A stretch of 64,000 nt of DNA. It comes from an uncultured Desulfatitalea sp. (GTDB lineage Bacteria; Desulfobacterota; Desulfobacteria; Desulfobacterales; Desulfosarcinaceae). Under the pieces are notes generated by a model. That model was given only the letters and a program-made list of their open reading frames with translations. It ran no database searches and had not been told where the DNA came from. Numbering within the stretch: the first letter of the stretch is position 1; every line of letters begins with the position of its first letter. This document shows positions 33,327 to 47,239 of this stretch, in pieces. The position numbers and the translations under genes are program-made. The stretch spans positions 186,001 to 250,000 of the forward strand of contig CALMNL010000006.1 of assembly GCA_937868765.1 (NCBI GenBank), given 5' to 3'.

Positions 33327-33400
33327 TTCCTTGAAACAGGAACCTCGGTCCCGTGGACGCTGCTTTATCCCGCAACTTTCCAATCAAGGAACGGAATCCA

Positions 33401-36400
33401 ATGAGACGAACCGCCCTGATCGCACTGCTTTTCTGTTTCGGCCTGCCGCTGGCCCATGCCGCCGATATAGGCAAATTCAGCCTACCCGACAACAGCCTGA
33501 AATGGACCCGGGAGGCCTCCCTGGACAAACAGTTCTCCGGTCAGGTGGTGCGGGTGCGCGACGCCCAGAAGTCCGAGATCCTGTTGATATTGCCCCTGGA
33601 TGGCACCGAGGCCTCTAGAGGCAGGACCATGGAGACCGTGCAGCGCCGGCTGGCCGAGGCCAGGCCCGGCGTGAAACTGGACGAGGCGGTACGGCTCAAC
33701 CTTGGAGACCGGACCTGGTACGGCGTGGGCCGGGAACAGGGGGGATTCGTCCAATACCACGGTGCGGTGAACAACGGCCGGCTGGTCTACGTGGTGGATC
33801 TGCGAGTGCCGGCGCCGGGGGAGTTTTCCGATGCCTTCAAGCGCTTCCTGGCCGAGGTCAAGATCCAGCGCGTGGTCGCACCAACCCAGGCGGCCGCCCT
33901 CATGAGCCAGGGCAACCAGTTGCTCAACAAGAAGGATTATAAAGGAGCCCTGGCGCGCTTCGATCAGGCCGCAGCCAAAGACCCCCGGAGCCCGGAAGTC
34001 TATTACTTCCGGGGTATGTGCCACAAGCGCATGAAGAACTACGCTGCCGCGCGAAAGGACCTGGACAAGGCCATCGCCATGAAAAAGAGCTCGGATTTCA
34101 TGGTGGAGCGGGCCGACGTGGAGATTGGCGCCCAGAATTACAAGGAAGCTTTTGGCTGGCTGGACAAGTCCCTGGCAGAAGACCCGGAGAGCGACCAGGC
34201 CTTTCGCTACCAGGGCAAGGCTTACTACTATGCCGGTCAGACGGAGAAATCCATCGCTGCTTACGAAAAATCGTTGGCGCTGAACCCGGCCGACGGCAGC
34301 GCCCGGGCCTCGCTGGTCAAGCTTCAGGCCGCCGTCCAGAAGAATACAGCCGCGGCCGTGGCCCAGCTTCAGGCCTATCGTGCCTTTCACCCGGGAAATC
34401 CGTATGCCCAAGAACTCAAACAGGAGATCCTGAAGGTCGATCCCAAGGCCAGGATCAGTGATGTGGCCCCGCCGACACCCAAGACCTCCCCGGGCCGGCT
34501 GGAGCCCGGCACCTTGGCAGACCAGGCGCCGGGAGCCACCGCCCACCGCGCCCCGGAGCCGGCGGTCACCACCGGATCGGGTGCCGCCGGAGGGCTGCGC
34601 GTCTCCGCGGCCCCCCCGGTCACCACCGTGACCGCGACCAAAGAGAGCGCGGCATCGCCCTCCGCCGGTGCCACCGGTAAAAAGGAAGGCGTGACCGCGG
34701 ATACATCCGCACCGGCAAGCCCCGTGGCGGCCGTCAGCCTGGAAGCGGCCCAGGCGGCTTTCAAGGAGCTGCCGCCATTGCCGCCGCTCGCCTCCATGCT
34801 GGCCCGGGCCAAAGCCTCGCCCGTGGCGCCCCGAGTGGACCCGGGGGCTTTCAGCCAGATGCAGTATCTGGGGGCCGTCTCGGCCGTCAAGCAGGCCATG
34901 GAAGAGCTGGTGGGGCCCATGAGCCCGGCGGCCAAGGTGAAGTTCGAGGCCCAGTGGGCCGCCATCTACGACTTTCCCGCCGACGCCTGCGTCGCCTACC
35001 TCAACGGCGCTTCGCCCCTGCTGGGCGAGATTCTCTCCTTGCGCGCGTCGATGATGAAAGTGATCCAGGGGTACGACAATTTCATCAACCAGGCCCGCAT
35101 GGCCCGCTTTTTCGGCAACCCTGCCGCGGCCCACGACGCCATGCGCCGGGCCGGCCAGCACGCAGCCCTGATGCAGGCCCTCAAGCGCCGCAGCGACGAG
35201 GCCGTGAAGTCCCTGACGGCCTTGGGCGAACTGCCCGACGCGGCCCTGATCAAGGCCCGCGCCGCCGAGCAGTACAACGCGGCCCGCAGTTTGCTCAAAA
35301 ACCTGGACCAGCCGTTGGAACTTTCCGGCGAGTACGAGCCGGCGCCCTACCAGTCGCTCCAGGACCCTTATGACGGCGGCCGCCGCCGGAACCCCGACGA
35401 CACCCTCATCCGCACCGAATTGAACGAGGATTACGATGCGATCACCTATTACCAGCCCCTGAAAAGCGTGGGCGCCAACCTGGTGCTCATGTACGTGTGC
35501 GAAACCGATACGGATGGCGACAAGAGCGCCTGGCTGCAATTGTTCGAAAACCAGGGCAACGGCCGCTTCGTCACTTACGGCGGCGGCAGCGATCTGACCA
35601 AGATCGTGCTCGAACTCAACGAGGATGGCTTTCAGAAGACCGAATACACCCTGGGCCCCAAGGAGATGTCCGAGGAGAACAACGACTTTTCCGAAAAAGC
35701 GGCGGCCCTCATCGCCAAGGGCAAGCGGCCGGCCATGGCCCTGACCCGCGACATCCGCTCGCGGGCCTTTTATGCCACCCACGTGCAGTACCAGCAGCCG
35801 CCCGGCGACGGCGAGTTCAACTTCAAGAACTGGGAAAAAGAGTTCCGGAACAACGAAAAAGAGTTTCTGGAAGAGTTCCAGGCCGAGCGCCTGGCCTTCG
35901 AAACCCTGGCCCCCGAGGTGGGTTTCCCCCAGCCGGTGCCGGCCGAGCACATCTTCTGGGTGCTGGACCGCGTCGAACCGGTGAACCCGCATCCCACCGG
36001 CCAGCACCGGTTGGCCCTGTATGTCGAAAACCAGCGGGCCGATGCGGCCTACAAGCAGTCCATGCGGCGCAAGAAGGAAGACGACCCCTATCCCATGATA
36101 ACCTCCGCCCGCAAGACCGATCTGTCCCAGAACAGCCTCTCCCACCGGGACGATTGGACGGTTTTCGACGACAACCCGCCTGACAAGCCGGTGCACGACC
36201 GCATGCAAATCGCCTACGACGTGAGCTGGACGGCGCCACCACCGGTGATCGCCCAGGCCGGCGGGCGTTTCGAGATCGATATTAAAGCCCTGCGGGATGC
36301 CTCCCAGCCCAGGGAGAATGCGCTGGTGCCCTCGCCCTGGGAAGACGTGACCGGCGCGGTGACCCTGGCCGTGGTCGACAAAGCCGGCAAGCATGCCGGC

Positions 36401-38767
36401 CGTGGCGGCGACGGCGCGCGCGCCAGCCTGCTGGCCCGGCATTTGACGTCCGGGCCCGGCAAGGCGAGCGAGACCACCCGGGTCCAATGCCCCGTGGATG
36501 GGCTCTACGGCGAATACGCCCAGATCACCCTGGGGATCGGCCCCAAGGAATTGACCGGCACCTGGGGCGCCAACCTGCGCTACCACTACGAGCGCAAGAT
36601 CATGACGCCCGACGAGGCGGCGGTCCTCAGCGCCCGGATGGGCGACAACCTGGAGCGCATCGCCCGCAAGGACGCGACCGACCGGGAGAAAAAAACGGCG
36701 GCGGCCAAGGATCACCAGGCGCGCCAGAAGCAGCAACAGACCCTGCAGGCGGCGGACGCCCAGGCGCGCAAAGAAACGGCCGAGTTTCACAAAGCCAACA
36801 TCCTCTATGAACAGAAGCGGGTCCAGCAGTACCAGCAAGAGCTGACGGCGGCCATCAACGAAGTGAAGCAGAGCGGAGAACCGCCCACCGAGGCGCAGCA
36901 GAAGCGCATCGCGGCCCTGCGCTTCAATATCATCAACGCCAAATCCAACGCCATCGCCGAGCAGGACAACATCCAGCAACTGGAAACCGGCGAATACCGG
37001 CGCAGCGAGACCCCCTTCGACAGCATGGCCCGCCTCCAGTTCCGGGAAAACATCGAAAAGAACATCCGCAAGATCGAAGGCGTGGAGACCCAGAACGAGC
37101 TGGCCGAGAAGTATATCGAATTGCTGCCCGCTGCCGAGCGCGCCCAGGCTTATAAGTCTTTGCAGAAGATCCGCGACGAGGCCCCCGACGATATCGCCCG
37201 CTACCAGAAGCTCAACGCGGCCCTGAAAAGCAAATGGCAGGGGGCCAGCGAGGCCAAGCTGGCCCAAATGGACGAGGACCTGGCCTGGAAGGAGGCCCAG
37301 GTGCAGGCCGTCGAAAACATCAAGACCGGCGCCGATGTGGGCATGCTGGCGTGCAGCATGATGGGCGGGCCCCAGGCCCTGGCCCTGACCTACCAGTTCG
37401 CCACGGGCTGGGCCGAAAAAGACCTGCTCACCGGGGTCAAACAGTCGGTTTCCCTGTACTCCGACGCCGTGGACATCGCCTGGAGCACCTACGACGGCTA
37501 CTGCCAGGGCGGCTGGGAAGGCGCGGCCAAGGCCGGCGGCGTCTCACTGCTGACCAACAAGGGGCTGCCCTTCCTGCTGGGCAGGATGACCAAAGGCGGC
37601 GACCTGCCCGATGCGGGCGGCGCGGTCAAGGCGGCCGACAACCTCTCTGGGGCGGCCAAGCAGGCCGAGTCCAGCGGCCCGGCCCTCAAGACCGGCAAAC
37701 CCAAACTCGACGACGTGAAGCAGTACGAGGCCGAGCTGCGCCAGGCCGAAACCCAGGTCAAGGGCTTTGTCAGCGACTACCACAACTGGAAGAAGGCGGT
37801 GAAGGCCGGGGCCTCGGAAAAGGAGATCGAACAACTGCACCGCAAGGTGATCGAATCCACGGCGGCCATCAACGGCAACCCGGCGGCCAAGGGCTATCTC
37901 AAGTACCAGGCCCAGCCGGCCGTGGGCCGCATCTTCAACCAGAGCCTGGACGACGTCCACGCCCAGGCGCGTAAAGTCTACTACGAGACCATGAAGAAGG
38001 CCGGCTACAGCGACCACGAGATCTTCGCCATCCGCAACGCGGCCAGCTCCGGCTCCACGGGCATGGACTTCGACCAGGCCCTCAAGGAGCAGCCCGACTG
38101 GATACCGGTCAAGCACCAGGACGGTACGACCTCGCTGCGGCGCAACGTCTGGCTGACCAAGAACGGCAAGCCGGTGTCGCGCCACCAGTGGCAACTGGAT
38201 GCCCAGGCCGCCTGGAACGATGCCTACAAGAAGGCCACCCACGGCGCCGAGGCGCCCCTGGCCTGGGAGAAGATGACCAGCAAGGTGGATCCCGAGGCCT
38301 ACCGCATGATGTCGGTGCTCAAGATTCACAAGGACCTGTCCAACGTGGACGAGATCATGGACGGCCTGGACCCCCAGTGGGTGCGCCAGATGTCCGACGT
38401 CACCCTGTTCAAGGCCGGCGAGATGCTCAACGACAAGAACCTCTCCCGCCTGGCCGGCGTGCGCGAGGCGTGCCGGGGCACGGCCAAGGACCTGGAAGGC
38501 AAGTTCCTGCCCTTCATCAGCAGCCGGCTGGACAACCTCAAAAAGATCCCCGAGGCCAAGCGCTCGGCGTCGGACCAGCACAACATCCAGCGGCTGGAGA
38601 GCGCCCTTTCGAGCTTCACCAAGGTCAAGGAGAGCTTCGCGGCCATCGGCAAGTCTGAGATCCCGCCCAGCCAGTGGGACGATGCGATCAATTTATCCAC
38701 CGGCGGCAGGGGCATCATGCAGACGATCCAGGACCTGTCGGATTTGACCCAGTCGTTGTTCAAGTAG
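33401..38767 (+). CDS. Giant exported TPR and coiled-coil protein of unknown function
   Basis: 1788 residues from ATG 33401 (AAGGA upstream). A signal peptide (about 1-22, LPLAHAAD) is followed by a compact domain (about 23-150), three to four TPR repeats (about 165-320; GNQLLNKKDYKGALARFDQAAAKDP, YYYAGQTEKSIAAYEKSLALNP), a Pro/Ala/Thr-rich linker (about 350-450), a helical then beta-rich middle (about 485-1060), a long charged coiled coil (about 1067-1290), a glycine-rich hydrophobic stretch (about 1307-1400, GMLACSMMGGPQALALTYQF) and a helical C-terminal region. I recognise no catalytic motif. The modular, tail-variable layout recalls large secreted effector or surface proteins, but that is inference. 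A DUF3592-type membrane protein follows 34 bases later. Confidence 0.8.
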   Translation: MRRTALIALLFCFGLPLAHAADIGKFSLPDNSLKWTREASLDKQFSGQVVRVRDAQKSEILLILPLDGTEASRGRTMETVQRRLAEARPGVKLDEAVRLNLGDRTWYGVGREQGGFVQYHGAVNNGRLVYVVDLRVPAPGEFSDAFKRFLAEVKIQRVVAPTQAAALMSQGNQLLNKKDYKGALARFDQAAAKDPRSPEVYYFRGMCHKRMKNYAAARKDLDKAIAMKKSSDFMVERADVEIGAQNYKEAFGWLDKSLAEDPESDQAFRYQGKAYYYAGQTEKSIAAYEKSLALNPADGSARASLVKLQAAVQKNTAAAVAQLQAYRAFHPGNPYAQELKQEILKVDPKARISDVAPPTPKTSPGRLEPGTLADQAPGATAHRAPEPAVTTGSGAAGGLRVSAAPPVTTVTATKESAASPSAGATGKKEGVTADTSAPASPVAAVSLEAAQAAFKELPPLPPLASMLARAKASPVAPRVDPGAFSQMQYLGAVSAVKQAMEELVGPMSPAAKVKFEAQWAAIYDFPADACVAYLNGASPLLGEILSLRASMMKVIQGYDNFINQARMARFFGNPAAAHDAMRRAGQHAALMQALKRRSDEAVKSLTALGELPDAALIKARAAEQYNAARSLLKNLDQPLELSGEYEPAPYQSLQDPYDGGRRRNPDDTLIRTELNEDYDAITYYQPLKSVGANLVLMYVCETDTDGDKSAWLQLFENQGNGRFVTYGGGSDLTKIVLELNEDGFQKTEYTLGPKEMSEENNDFSEKAAALIAKGKRPAMALTRDIRSRAFYATHVQYQQPPGDGEFNFKNWEKEFRNNEKEFLEEFQAERLAFETLAPEVGFPQPVPAEHIFWVLDRVEPVNPHPTGQHRLALYVENQRADAAYKQSMRRKKEDDPYPMITSARKTDLSQNSLSHRDDWTVFDDNPPDKPVHDRMQIAYDVSWTAPPPVIAQAGGRFEIDIKALRDASQPRENALVPSPWEDVTGAVTLAVVDKAGKHAGRGGDGARASLLARHLTSGPGKASETTRVQCPVDGLYGEYAQITLGIGPKELTGTWGANLRYHYERKIMTPDEAAVLSARMGDNLERIARKDATDREKKTAAAKDHQARQKQQQTLQAADAQARKETAEFHKANILYEQKRVQQYQQELTAAINEVKQSGEPPTEAQQKRIAALRFNIINAKSNAIAEQDNIQQLETGEYRRSETPFDSMARLQFRENIEKNIRKIEGVETQNELAEKYIELLPAAERAQAYKSLQKIRDEAPDDIARYQKLNAALKSKWQGASEAKLAQMDEDLAWKEAQVQAVENIKTGADVGMLACSMMGGPQALALTYQFATGWAEKDLLTGVKQSVSLYSDAVDIAWSTYDGYCQGGWEGAAKAGGVSLLTNKGLPFLLGRMTKGGDLPDAGGAVKAADNLSGAAKQAESSGPALKTGKPKLDDVKQYEAELRQAETQVKGFVSDYHNWKKAVKAGASEKEIEQLHRKVIESTAAINGNPAAKGYLKYQAQPAVGRIFNQSLDDVHAQARKVYYETMKKAGYSDHEIFAIRNAASSGSTGMDFDQALKEQPDWIPVKHQDGTTSLRRNVWLTKNGKPVSRHQWQLDAQAAWNDAYKKATHGAEAPLAWEKMTSKVDPEAYRMMSVLKIHKDLSNVDEIMDGLDPQWVRQMSDVTLFKAGEMLNDKNLSRLAGVREACRGTAKDLEGKFLPFISSRLDNLKKIPEAKRSASDQHNIQRLESALSSFTKVKESFAAIGKSEIPPSQWDDAINLSTGGRGIMQTIQDLSDLTQSLFK

Positions 38768-43023: not shown

Positions 43024-43186
43024 GGGGCATGCTCCTTGTGATGTAGTTGGGTCGGCAACGCTACCTTAAACCAATTTGGCTCAAAGGCCAAGGTGGGGGT
43101 GAATTCAAGCGATCACCTTGCGCCGAAGCCCGATTTGTGCTCACATAGCCTGAAAAATCCGCTGCTTTGACTAAAGGAGGGGCATC

Positions 43187-44074
43187 ATGACCGCACCTGG
43201 GAAAACCGTGAATGGATTTCGCTTCATGCCGCCGTCGCTGGCTGCCTGGATCGGCAGCAGCATACCGGAAAAACCCTTTTCGGGCGATATTCCGTGGACA
43301 CCGCTGGGCAAGCCCCTGGCGGAAACCACCTTTGCGTTGATGACCTCGGCGGGCATCAGCGTAAAAAGCGACCCGCCCTTCGACATGGCGCGCGAGCGCC
43401 GGGAACCCACCTGGGGCGACCCCACCTTTCGGGCCATCCCCCGTGAGGCCGGCGAAGCGGACATAGCGGTGAACCATCTGCACATCACCACCGATTTCAT
43501 CAAGCAGGACCTGAACGTCATCCTGCCGCTGGCACGCTTCCGGGAACTGGAGCGGGATGGCCGTATCGGCCGGCTGGCGCCCACCAGCTACTCGTACTAC
43601 GGCTACCAGCCCGATCCGACGGTGCTGCTGAGCGAGGCCATGCCCCAGGTGGCCGAGCGGATGCGGGCCGAGGGGGTCGAGGCGGTCTTGCTGACACCGG
43701 CCTGACCCCTTTGCTGCCGGTCCGTGGGACTGGTCGCACGTTCGCTGGAAGCCGCCGGCATTGCCACCATCGTGCTCACCCCCATGCCCGAGTTTCATCG
43801 GGAAATAGGCATCCCGCGGGTGGCGGCCATCGAGTACCCCTTCGGCCGGGTGGTGGGTCAGGTCGGTGATCCCCAGGGGCAGCTTCGGGTGATCGAGGCC
43901 GCCCTGGGCTGCCTGGAAAAGGCGGATCGCCCGGGCCAGGCGTTCCACCTGGACTTCACGTGGCCGGAAGCGCCCAAGACGGCCAAGTGGCAGCCGCCGG
44001 AGATCTCGCCCATCGTGAAGCACTTTTTGGAAGAAATCAAAAAGGCCGCCGCCGAGGCCCATCGAAGGAGCTAA
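43187..44074 (+). CDS. GrdB/PrdB-family selenoprotein, Sec-encoding TGA at 43703
   Basis: 295 residues if the TGA at 43703-43705 is read as selenocysteine (U173). The frame continues without shift on both sides: ...[36 protein letters not shown], which matches the conserved region of glycine/sarcosine/betaine and D-proline reductase component B proteins (PF07355), where Sec lies between VLL.P and a VGLVARELE-type helix. U173 and C176 form a UxxC redox pair. A hairpin with its loop about 18 bases after the TGA fits a bacterial SECIS. AAAGGAGG precedes the ATG. The stop overlaps the ppk1 start (TAATG). Substrate unknown: no other reductase subunits are present nearby. Confidence 0.87.
43703..43740 (+). 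promoter_or_regulatory. Candidate bacterial SECIS element
   Basis: Begins at the UGA. GCCGGTCC (43716-43723) pairs with GGACTGGT (43727-43734), including two G-U pairs, enclosing a GUG apical loop 18-20 bases after the UGA. Bacterial SECIS elements lie directly 3' of UGA with the loop 16-37 bases away and a G in the loop, so position and shape fit SelB recruitment. Confidence 0.65.
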
Positions 44075-46272
44075 TGGACGCCAATCCCAATATGCCGAAT
44101 ATCGCTTTGCCGTCTGCCGGCGCCGATGAGGGCCGCGGTGCCGCGGTGGGGTTCGACCCCAAATCGCCCCTGCGCTTCATCAACCGCGAGCTCTCCTGGC
44201 TCCAGTTCAACCACCGGGTGCTGGAGGAGGCCTTCAACCCGGCCCATCCACTGCTGGAGCGACTGCGCTTCCTGACCATCTCGGCCAGCAACCTGGACGA
44301 GTTCTATATGGTGCGCGTGGCGGGTTTGAAAGCCCAGGTGGCCTCGGGGGTTTCCAGCGAGAGCCCGGACCAGATGACGCCGGCCCAGCAGCTGATGCTC
44401 ATCGACGAGAGCATCGCCCTGCTGCGCAACGAGCAGCAGCGCTGCCTGGAGATGCTGCTGGCGCTGATGGACGCCGAAGGCATTCAGCTGATCAACCCGG
44501 ACCAGCTTACGGACGACGAGCACAAGTGGCTGGCCAGGCGCTTCCAGGAGCAGATCTTCCCGGTCTTGAGCCCCCTGGCCGTGGACCCGGCGCATCCCTT
44601 TCCCTTCATCCCCAACCTGGGTCTCACCCTGGCCCTGAGCCTGGAGAACGAGAGCGACGGCACCACCATGGTGGCCCTGGTGATCCTGCCCAACCAGCTC
44701 AGCCGTTTCGTGCGGCTGCCGGGGGCGCGCAACCGTTTCATCAGCCTGGTCAAGGTGGTGATCATGTACCTGGACCAGCTCTTCCCGGGCTTCAAACGCA
44801 TCTCCCACGGCCTTTTCCGGGTGATTCGCGACAGTGAGGTGGAGATCGAGGAAGAGGCCGAAGACCTGGTGCGCACTTTCAAGTCGGCCTTGAAACGCCG
44901 GCGGCGGGGCAGCGTGGTGCGGATGTCGGTGGACGACGAGATGTCTGAGGAATTGACCGATCTGATCCTGGAGCAGCTGGGGGTGTCGCCCGGCGAGCTC
45001 TTCCGTTTCAAGTACCTGGGATTGCCCGATTTCAAGGAATTGATCGCGGACAATCGGCCCGACCTGCTCTTTACGACCTATGTGCCGCGTTTTCCCGAGC
45101 GCATCCGCGACTTCGGCGGCGACTGCTTTGCAGCCATCACCGCCAAGGATATCATCGTGCACCACCCCTACGAGAGCTTCGACGTGGTGCTGCAGTTCAT
45201 CCGCCAGGCCAGCCTGGACCCCAACGTGGTCTCCATCAAGCAGACGCTTTACCGCACCAGCGAAGACAGCCCCATCGTCCAGGCCCTGGTGGAGGCGGCC
45301 GAGGCGGGCAAGAGCGTCACGGTGATGGTGGAACTCAAGGCGCGTTTCGACGAAGCCGCCAACATCGAATTCGCCCGGCGCCTGGAGCGCAGCGGCGCCC
45401 AGGTGGTCTATGGATTCATCGATTTCAAGACCCACGCCAAACTCTCGCTGGTGGTGCGAAGGGAAGGGGAGCGTTTCACCTCCTACGCCCACCTGGGCAC
45501 GGGCAACTACCACCCCATCACGGCCAAGATCTACACCGATCTCTCCTTCTTCACCAGCGACCCCCAGATCTGCACCGACGTGATGCGCATCTTCAACTAT
45601 ATGACCGGCTACGCCAAGCCGGTGCACCTCAAGCGGCTGCGCCTGTCGCCGCTCAACCTGCGCACCCAGCTGCAGGCCGATATCGAGGCCGAGATCGCCC
45701 ACTGCCGGGCCGGGCGGCCGGGCCGCATCTGGGTCAAGCTCAACGCCCTGGTGGACCCCGAAATCATCGACAGTCTGTGCCGCGCATCCCAGGCCGGGGT
45801 GAAAATCGAGCTGGTGGTGCGCGGGGTCTGCTGTCTGCGGCCGGGCATTCCGGGCTACTCGGAGAACATCCGGGTCAAATCGATCATCGGCCGCTTCCTG
45901 GAGCACAGCCGCATCGTCTGCTTCGGCAATGGGTATGAACTGCCTTCGCGCCAGGCCAAGGTGTACATTTCGTCGGCCGACTGGATGCCACGCAACCTGG
46001 ACCGGCGCATCGAGAGCCTGGTGCCGATCCTCAATCCCACGGTGCACCAGCAGGTGCTGGACCAGATCATGGTGGCCAACCTGCGCGACAATGTCCAGAG
46101 CTGGATGCTGCGTCCCGACGGCCGCTACGAGCGGCTCAAGCCGGACAAGGAGATCTTCAACGCCCACCTGTTCTTCATGACCAACCCGAGCCTGTCGGGC
46201 CGAGGTTCCTCGTCCGAGCCGGAGAAAACGGCCGGTAAGAAGAAATTCAAGAAGAAGAAAAACAAGGCATGA
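44074..46272 (+). CDS. ppk1: Polyphosphate kinase 1
   Basis: 732 residues, ATG sharing a base with the selenoprotein stop (TAATG). Polymerises the ATP gamma-phosphate into inorganic polyphosphate. Begins with the conserved [20 protein letters not shown] of the N-domain, [15 protein letters not shown] in the head domain, and the two phospholipase-D-like C domains with catalytic His residues in [14 protein letters not shown] and [23 protein letters not shown], then [18 protein letters not shown] Lys-rich tail ([10 protein letters not shown]) ends it. Adjacent convergent ppx forms the usual polyphosphate pair. Confidence 0.95.
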
Positions 46273-46318
46273 GGGTGCGAGGCCGCAGGCGTGCTCGCGT
46301 GAGCACTCAACAAGATTA

Positions 46319-47239
46319 TCAGTTGCTCTGAATTCCAGCGCCTGAATTCTGGCTTTTGTGCCGCTGGTAGAGCAGGCGCACGGCGCCGTCGGCCAGGCCC
46401 ACCTGGGGCACGAAGATCTTTTGGGCCCCGGCCCAGCGCATGACGTTGAGGTAGATGTCGGCGGCCGGCACGATCACGTCGGCCCGGTCGGGGCGCAGGT
46501 CCAGGATGGTAATGCGTTCCTCGAACGAGTATTGCACCAGTTCCCGTCGCACGTCGGTGAGCTTGTCGATGGAGAGCGGTCGGCCGTTCTTGCAGTTGGC
46601 GAGGCGGAAAATCTTGTTGATGTTGCCGCCGCTGCCGATGGCGGCGATGGAACCGTGCTCTGCCGTCCGGGTCTTGAGCCACTGGTGCATCTCGTCCCAG
46701 CGGGCCTTGCCCACCTGATCCTGCAGGATGCGAATGGTGCCGATGTCGAAGGAGGCCGAACCGGCGATGCGGCCGCCGGCAAACAGGGTAATCTCGGTGC
46801 TGCCGCCGCCCACGTCCACGTAGAGGTAATCTTTGTAGCCGCCGAAGCTCTCGGCGCTCTTGTTCTCGAAAATCAACTGGGCTTCCTGGGGGCCGTCGAC
46901 GATCTCCACCCGGATGCCGCTCTCCTTTTCGATGCGTGCGCAGATCTCCGGACCGTTCACCGCGCCGCGCATGGCCGACGTGGCGTAGGCCCGGCAGGCG
47001 ATGGGCTGGTAGGCGTCGATGAGGTGCTTGAAGCCCACCATGGTCTGCACCAACGCGCGGGCCTTCTCGTCCGAGATGCGCTGCAGCGAAAAGGCGTCGC
47101 TGCCCAGGCGGATGGGCATGCGGGTCAGGGACATCTTTTTGAAGAACGGTTTGCGGCCCATTTCAAATACGTTGGCCAGCAGCAGGCGCACGGCATTGGA
47201 GCCGATATCGATGGCCGCGAATTTCAACGTCGTGAACAT
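46319..47239 (-). CDS. ppx: Ppx/GppA-family exopolyphosphatase
   Basis: 306 residues, short Ppx/GppA type without the C-terminal HD domain. Actin-like ATPase fold: AAIDIGSNAVRLLLA at the N-terminus, AYATSAMRGAVNG, the phosphate-binding YVDVGGGSTEITLF and GSGGNINKIFRL. Degrades polyphosphate and may cleave pppGpp. Convergent with ppk1 46 bases away. GGAG lies upstream of the ATG. Confidence 0.88.
   Translation of the reverse strand: MFTTLKFAAIDIGSNAVRLLLANVFEMGRKPFFKKMSLTRMPIRLGSDAFSLQRISDEKARALVQTMVGFKHLIDAYQPIACRAYATSAMRGAVNGPEICARIEKESGIRVEIVDGPQEAQLIFENKSAESFGGYKDYLYVDVGGGSTEITLFAGGRIAGSASFDIGTIRILQDQVGKARWDEMHQWLKTRTAEHGSIAAIGSGGNINKIFRLANCKNGRPLSIDKLTDVRRELVQYSFEERITILDLRPDRADVIVPAADIYLNVMRWAGAQKIFVPQVGLADGAVRLLYQRHKSQNSGAGIQSN

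What the first reader, a model, noticed from the sequence alone, without database searches (positions are those of the whole stretch)
43187..44074. Unannotated GrdB-family selenoprotein coupled to ppk1
Seen: a frame interrupted only by TGA at 43703 continues for 123 codons with GRDB-family sequence on both sides ([22 protein letters not shown]), with UxxC spacing and a hairpin whose loop lies about 18 bases after the TGA. Established: UGA is Sec in bacterial GrdB/PrdB proteins and bacterial SECIS lies directly 3' of UGA. Inference: the stand-alone protein reduces a thioether- or C-N-containing metabolite or has a redox role, and its overlap with ppk1 (TAATG) suggests a link to phosphate or energy stress.
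Basis: partly seen in the sequence, partly recalled or inferred. Interest (0 to 1): 0.75.

Follow-up and report, generated by a model that had tools for sequence, protein, structure and literature searches.

The report
Stand-alone PrdB-like bacterial selenoprotein
The stretch encodes what is almost certainly a selenocysteine enzyme, related to the selenium subunit of bacterial amino-acid reductases but found without the partner subunit those enzymes need, so its reaction is unknown; its position next to a polyphosphate kinase gene looks accidental.

Summary
Confirmed: window 43187-44074 (+) is one 295-residue selenoprotein gene with Sec173 encoded by the TGA at 43703. Of 67 distinct sequences (window included), 65 keep TGA, including all 35 of the window's clade. 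The hairpin meets the published bacterial SECIS rules. Its stem covaries across 65 sequences (0 of 500 shuffles as high), and four of its codons have the lowest synonymous diversity of 210 columns. selA, selB, selC and selD are present.

The protein is nearer to PrdB (D-proline reductase selenosubunit) than to GrdB, but scores 146 bits against PrdB's 300-bit cut-off. The pyruvoyl-type partner family (PF09338) was not found in 27 of 28 genomes carrying the gene; PrdA is over cut-off in 0 of 395 phylum genomes. So this is an orphan subfamily, not a D-proline or glycine reductase complex.

The ppk1 link is not supported: ppk1 is the neighbour in 1 of 36 loci. Best mechanism, inferred: the selenolate attacks a small electrophilic substrate, Cys176 resolves the adduct, and a cellular dithiol regenerates the enzyme.

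The parts
43187..44074 (+). stand-alone PrdB/GrdB-superfamily selenoprotein gene, 295 aa with Sec173
   Evidence: reading frame; family; relatives keep TGA; constraint on both sides of the TGA
43703..43705 (+). Sec codon TGA (Sec173), first residue of the U-P-L-C-C motif
   Evidence: TGA in 68 of 70 rows examined (65 of 67 after removing 3 identical ones); one Cys, one Gly
43716..43734 (+). SECIS upper stem-loop: 8-bp stem in the folded window sequence (7 pairs, 43717-43733, tested across sequences), loop GUG at 43724-43726
   Evidence: rule set from PMC13188914
43712..43717 (+). codons of Cys176 and Cys177; Cys176 is the likely resolving thiol (UxxC)
   Evidence: Cys176 invariant in the 65 aligned members and in 81% of 16 GrdB-type sequences; the resolving role is inference
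43173..43180 (+). Shine-Dalgarno-like AAAGGAGG, 6 nt before the ATG
   Evidence: read directly
44074..46272 (+). ppk1 (polyphosphate kinase), overlaps the selenoprotein stop by one base; neighbour only, not part of the conserved unit
   Evidence: Pfam; not conserved as neighbour

Best explanation
Window 43187-44074 encodes a selenoenzyme of the PrdB/GrdB superfamily that works without the pyruvoyl subunit (PrdA/GrdE). Shown by sequence: UGA decoding is supported by TGA conservation, a covarying SECIS and the Sec machinery, and the conserved residues His97, Asp108, Sec173, Cys176, Glu188 and Arg211 are shared with GrdB. Shown by prediction: Sec173 sits just before a helix that follows a strand, in a confidently modelled alpha/beta fold. 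Inferred: the selenolate attacks an electrophilic centre of a small substrate that needs no Schiff-base activation, for example an activated C-X bond. Cys176 then displaces the product and forms a selenenylsulfide, which a thioredoxin-type dithiol (perhaps helped by Cys177) reduces. The lack of a conserved operon suggests a general role, such as detoxification or reduction of a common metabolite, rather than one step of a dedicated pathway.
For: Selenoprotein: and Sec machinery. Same core residues as GrdB: six positions conserved in the window clade (35), the other short stand-alone members (32), the long stand-alone members (11) and 16 GrdB-type sequences, at 81-100% in the last group. No pyruvoyl partner: PF09338 not found in 27 of 28 genomes with the gene (window genome and 13 relatives; 13 of 14 more), with positive hits in G119 and in 17 of 395 genomes. 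The one exception, G394, has PF09338 on another contig, near its own GrdB-type gene. PrdA over cut-off in 0 of 395. GrdA found in 1 of 20 genomes (G119), in none of the 14 gene carriers among them. No neighbour family in more than 6 of 36 loci. Model pLDDT 96.1, pTM 0.93; helix 174-189 follows strand 166-170.
Confidence: 0.5

Rival explanations
1. It is a general selenol/thiol redox enzyme (peroxide, disulfide or sulfenate reduction), using the UxxCC motif like a thioredoxin-type or peroxidase active site in a different fold.
For: UxxC is the motif of many redox selenoproteins (tables in PMC1088965 and PMC13188914). PrdB-type selenoproteins are abundant in ocean samples (42 in the Sargasso set, 235 in GOS), where I judge amino-acid reduction by strict anaerobes unlikely. 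No pathway-specific neighbours.
Against: His97, Asp108, Glu188 and Arg211 are shared with GrdB, more than a bare redox motif needs. The order of helices and strands does not look thioredoxin-like (my reading). It was not tested whether the ocean proteins belong to this clade.
Confidence: 0.35
2. It is the selenosubunit of a conventional D-proline or glycine-type reductase whose partner lies elsewhere in the genome.
For: The PrdB model is the best NCBIfam match, and it matches 65 of 65 aligned members.
Against: PF09338 and PrdA not found in the window genome; PF09338 not found in 27 of 28 genomes with the gene; score 146 against a 300-bit cut-off for PrdB.
Confidence: 0.05
3. The gene works with ppk1 in phosphate or energy stress.
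For: TAATG overlap and the same strand suggest co-transcription or coupled translation in this genome.
Against: ppk1 occurs in 1 of 36 loci. The two same-genus loci, L060 and L061, with more than 8 kb downstream, have other neighbours.
Confidence: 0.05
4. The TGA is a true stop or an error, and the downstream part is a remnant.
For: Automatic gene calling ends at TGA: the table-11 ORF is 172 aa. One relative, L103, has GGA at this codon.
Against: 35 of 35 distinct clade members have TGA; the downstream part is under protein-level constraint; SECIS covariation.
Confidence: 0.01

Closest known systems
PrdB, selenosubunit of D-proline reductase (TIGR04483)
   Same: Comparable size (model 238 positions), UxxC with Sec, best family match across residues 34-257.
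   Different: 146 bits against a cut-off of 300; PrdA not found in the genome and over cut-off in 0 of 395 sampled phylum genomes; second Cys (UxxCC) in 33 of 35 clade members; C-terminal stretch with Trp259, Glu261 and Trp268 conserved in the clade.
GrdB/GrdF/GrdH, substrate-binding selenosubunits of glycine, sarcosine and betaine reductase (PF07355, TIGR01917, TIGR01918, NF040794, NF040795)
   Same: The region around Sec is homologous; His97, Asp108, Sec173, Cys176, Glu188 and Arg211 are kept in 81-100% of 16 GrdB-type sequences.
   Different: Pfam positions 1-212 of 347 not matched; motif UPxCCxSVGL against UGTCTRCGAT; separate in the tree with 100/100 support; GrdE-type and GrdA genes not found in the window genome.
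Fluoroacetate reductase FarB (GrdB-like, Synergistota, PMC10838667)
   Same: A Sec protein of the same superfamily proposed to act on a substrate that cannot form a Schiff base (passages seen).
   Different: FarB is encoded with a GrdE-like partner, a transporter and a radical SAM protein; no neighbour family is conserved here beyond 6 of 36 loci.
UGSC family selenoproteins (NF041046, PF24696)
   Same: Weak profile similarity: 1 of 65 members at E 0.00039; 2 of 65 at E up to 0.1, best 0.064.
   Different: Far below family level; a lead only.

Membership tests
Bacterial selenoprotein gene | in-frame UGA conserved among homologues, with protein homology on both sides | tested here: met
Bacterial selenoprotein gene | bSECIS: 3-9 nt loop, 4-16 bp stem, G in the first two loop positions, 16-37 nt from UGA, MFE at or below -7.5 kcal/mol (rules from PMC13188914) | tested here: met
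   loop GUG, 8-bp stem, 18 nt, -16.3 kcal/mol (rules); covariation
Bacterial selenoprotein gene | genome has selA, selB, selC, selD | tested here: met
   each best match above its family cut-off
Bacterial selenoprotein gene | selenium in the isolated protein | not testable with these tools
   needs 75Se labelling or mass spectrometry
PF07355 GRDB superfamily | score above Pfam gathering cut-off | tested here: met
   37 bits against 22; 65 of 65 aligned members match at E up to 0.1
PrdB, D-proline reductase | TIGR04483 equivalog cut-off of 300 bits | tested here: not met
   145.9 bits
PrdB, D-proline reductase | pyruvoyl partner PrdA in the genome | tested here: not met
   No genome known to carry PrdA was available as a control; the PrdA model did detect the more distant PF09338 genes
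GrdB of glycine/sarcosine/betaine reductase | full-length GrdB with N-terminal half | tested here: not met
   only profile positions 213-345 of 347 matched
GrdB of glycine/sarcosine/betaine reductase | GrdE-type (PF09338) and GrdA genes in the genome | tested here: not met
   with G119 as positive genome
A solved-structure fold family | clear structural relative in the PDB | tested here: inconclusive

The most novel reading that the evidence does not exclude
A widespread single-subunit selenoenzyme family carries out GrdB/PrdB-type reductive bond cleavage by a selenoether intermediate without any pyruvoyl partner. Many selenoproteins that surveys count as 'proline reductase' would then catalyse an undiscovered reaction.
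Probability: 0.35. Interest if true: 0.65.

Novelty: new variant of a known kind. Interest (0 to 1): 0.42.

Why it matters
[quoted passage not shown] In the sampled phylum most genomes with a match to this protein have no partner gene: 80 of 85 lack a PF09338 match, and PrdA is over cut-off in 0 of 395. If this holds more widely, a common selenoenzyme has no assigned reaction and its name is misleading; whether the surveys' proteins belong to the stand-alone groups was not tested here. The clean SECIS signal and the high-confidence model make it a good target for assays. For annotation, the gene must be read through the UGA, otherwise it appears as a 172-residue fragment.

Tried and rejected
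The ppk1 link was tested by comparing 36 neighbourhoods (window included) and rejected. Seven of those loci have less than 1.5 kb downstream of the gene (L007, L011, L013, L064, L065, L112, L118). The most frequent neighbour families occur in 6 of 36 loci: a conserved gene order on the opposite strand in one group of relatives (genes such as a thymidylate-kinase-like one, named from recall of sequence starts). Families that look like enoyl-CoA hydratase (also by recall) occur in 4 of 36. I judged neither to be a functional link. Gene calling in these loci was a simple longest-ORF rule.

Energy-based folding of the hairpin alone was not significant (z -0.67), so I did not use it as evidence. 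Rfam gave no hit at gathering thresholds in the window. Sequence search of solved structures found only chance-level matches (best E 0.34), and fold search found no clear relative (a missing match does not show that the fold is new). No PHROG family matched. The C-terminal parts of two of the 11 long stand-alone members matched nothing in Pfam, and one of these nothing in the PDB. The neighbourhood of the second copy in the genome was only looked at. Promoter and terminator scans near the gene found nothing above chance. I had no authentic clostridial PrdB sequence, so the tree does not place PrdB; it also warns that the long and GrdB branches may attract each other. The genome searches score only part of their first-look candidates in some genomes, so absences are absences at that sensitivity.

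In papers I saw only passages or listings: PMC9312934, PMC13188914, PMC1088965, PMC2398784, PMC10838667, PMC9751293, PMC10298544, PMC5029168. I saw no description of a stand-alone PrdB-like subfamily without PrdA in their listings or in the passages read; the library holds open-licence papers only.

Full report
OBSERVATION. The + strand frame 43187-44074 starts with ATG after a Shine-Dalgarno-like AAAGGAGG, is interrupted only by TGA at 43703-43705, and ends with TAA, whose last base is the first base of the ATG of ppk1. Standard calling gives a 172-residue ORF. Read with TGA as Sec it is a 295-residue protein with the motif [13 protein letters not shown].

IS THE UGA SEC? Relatives were taken from one scan of genome contigs (11 loci), from 146 related genomes (59 with a match) and from 395 genomes of the phylum (85 with a match); loci of the best matches only were read. 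In 70 rows examined codon by codon, 68 have TGA, one Cys (L052) and one Gly (L103) at the position; three rows were identical to others, leaving 67. The window's clade is 35 distinct sequences, window included, all with TGA. Between the window and 10 chosen relatives, protein identity is 58-74% downstream and 63-74% upstream of the TGA, and downstream non-synonymous differences per site (0.15-0.28) are far below synonymous ones (0.55-0.76); some pairs are saturated at synonymous sites.

SECIS. The sequence folds into an 8-bp stem with a GUG loop 18 nt after the UGA at -16.3 kcal/mol, which meets the four bSECIS rules printed in PMC13188914. Energy alone is unremarkable against shuffles (49 of 200 as good). 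The comparative evidence is strong. In the 35-sequence clade the four columns with the least synonymous variation out of 210 are codons 182, 179, 178 and 181, all in the stem; in 30 more distant TGA-bearing sequences codons 179, 182 and 181 rank 1-3 of 190, while 178 ranks 29. On 65 sequences (64 distinct), 97.3% of cells pair, 5 of 7 pairs have changes on both sides, and 0 of 500 shuffles reach any of the five measures; slid registers fall to 6-59% paired. The Cys homologue L052 forms only 4 of the 7 pairs, two of them G-U, while L103 (Gly) keeps all 7. The genome has selA, selB, tRNA-Sec with anticodon TCA and a selD that itself contains an in-frame TGA.

PARTNERS. D-proline and glycine-type reductases use a second subunit in which a pyruvoyl or other carbonyl group is thought to activate the substrate (general knowledge; passages in PMC10298544, and PMC10838667). 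PF09338, the family of that subunit, was not found in 27 of 28 genomes with a window-type gene: the window genome and 13 relatives and 13 of 14 more in the phylum sample. The exception, G394, carries it on another contig, near a GrdB-type gene. The searches rang where they should: G119 and 17 of 395 genomes. Over the phylum sample, 80 of 85 genomes with any match to the query at E up to 1e-15 have no PF09338 match. PrdA is over cut-off in 0 of 395; the weak hits, in 15 genomes, all lie on PF09338 genes listed. GrdA was found in 1 of 20 genomes, and in none of the 14 gene carriers searched.

NEIGHBOURS. In 36 neighbourhoods of window-type genes ppk1 occurs once, in the window. No neighbour family occurs in more than 6 of 36 loci, and those that reach 6 belong to one conserved gene order on the opposite strand. 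Pfam confirms ppk1, a convergent ppx/gppA-type gene and an upstream divergent short-chain dehydrogenase here.

MECHANISM. Shared GrdB residues, the Sec at the start of a helix and the missing pyruvoyl partner point to a selenolate that attacks an already electrophilic small substrate, with Cys176 as resolving thiol and a cellular dithiol as donor. This is inference. The main rival is a simple redox enzyme; the abundance of PrdB-type selenoproteins in ocean samples (42 in the Sargasso set; 235 in GOS) suits either, and whether those belong to this clade was not tested. I put 0.5 on the first and 0.35 on the rival; the selenoprotein call itself is about 0.98.

KNOWN OR NEW. The superfamily and its broad occurrence are known, usually under the names PrdB, GrdB or proline reductase. 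What is added here is that the window's clade is a coherent orphan subfamily, whose window member scores below the PrdB cut-off and for which PrdA, GrdE-type and GrdA genes are generally missing. I saw no earlier statement of this in the listings of searches or in the passages I read.

Noticed in passing
genome contig C5:53393-54046 (L001, L073), outside the window: A second, divergent PrdB-like selenoprotein (43% identity, motif TPAUGLCNQSVGLVQR) in the same genome; its relatives form the other main short stand-alone group among the loci read.
   Followed up: partly
L141-L150, L155: Long stand-alone relatives (open frames mostly about 410-430 aa, motif VPVUPxCTRAVG) carry a C-terminal part of about 160 residues; two of 11 were tested and matched no Pfam family. 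A possible functional clue.
   Followed up: partly
L103 (codon aligned to Sec173): One relative has GGA instead of TGA while all 7 SECIS pairs are intact: recent loss of Sec or a sequencing error.
   Followed up: partly
L052 (codon aligned to Sec173): A natural Cys form in which only 4 of the 7 SECIS pairs can form.
   Followed up: partly
alignment A1: Weak profile similarity between this family and the UGSC selenoprotein family (1 of 65 members at E 0.00039), hinting at a distant relationship.
   Followed up: no
window 44074-47239: ppk1 on the + strand faces a ppx/gppA-type gene on the - strand (46319-47239), a compact polyphosphate pair.
   Followed up: no
window 33353-38767: A very long ORF (1804 aa), not examined.
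   Followed up: no
G452 contig C159, about 1.2 kb downstream of its window-type gene (L114): A second partial copy of the selenoprotein's C-terminal part (query 191-273, 49% identity) beside the full gene.
   Followed up: no
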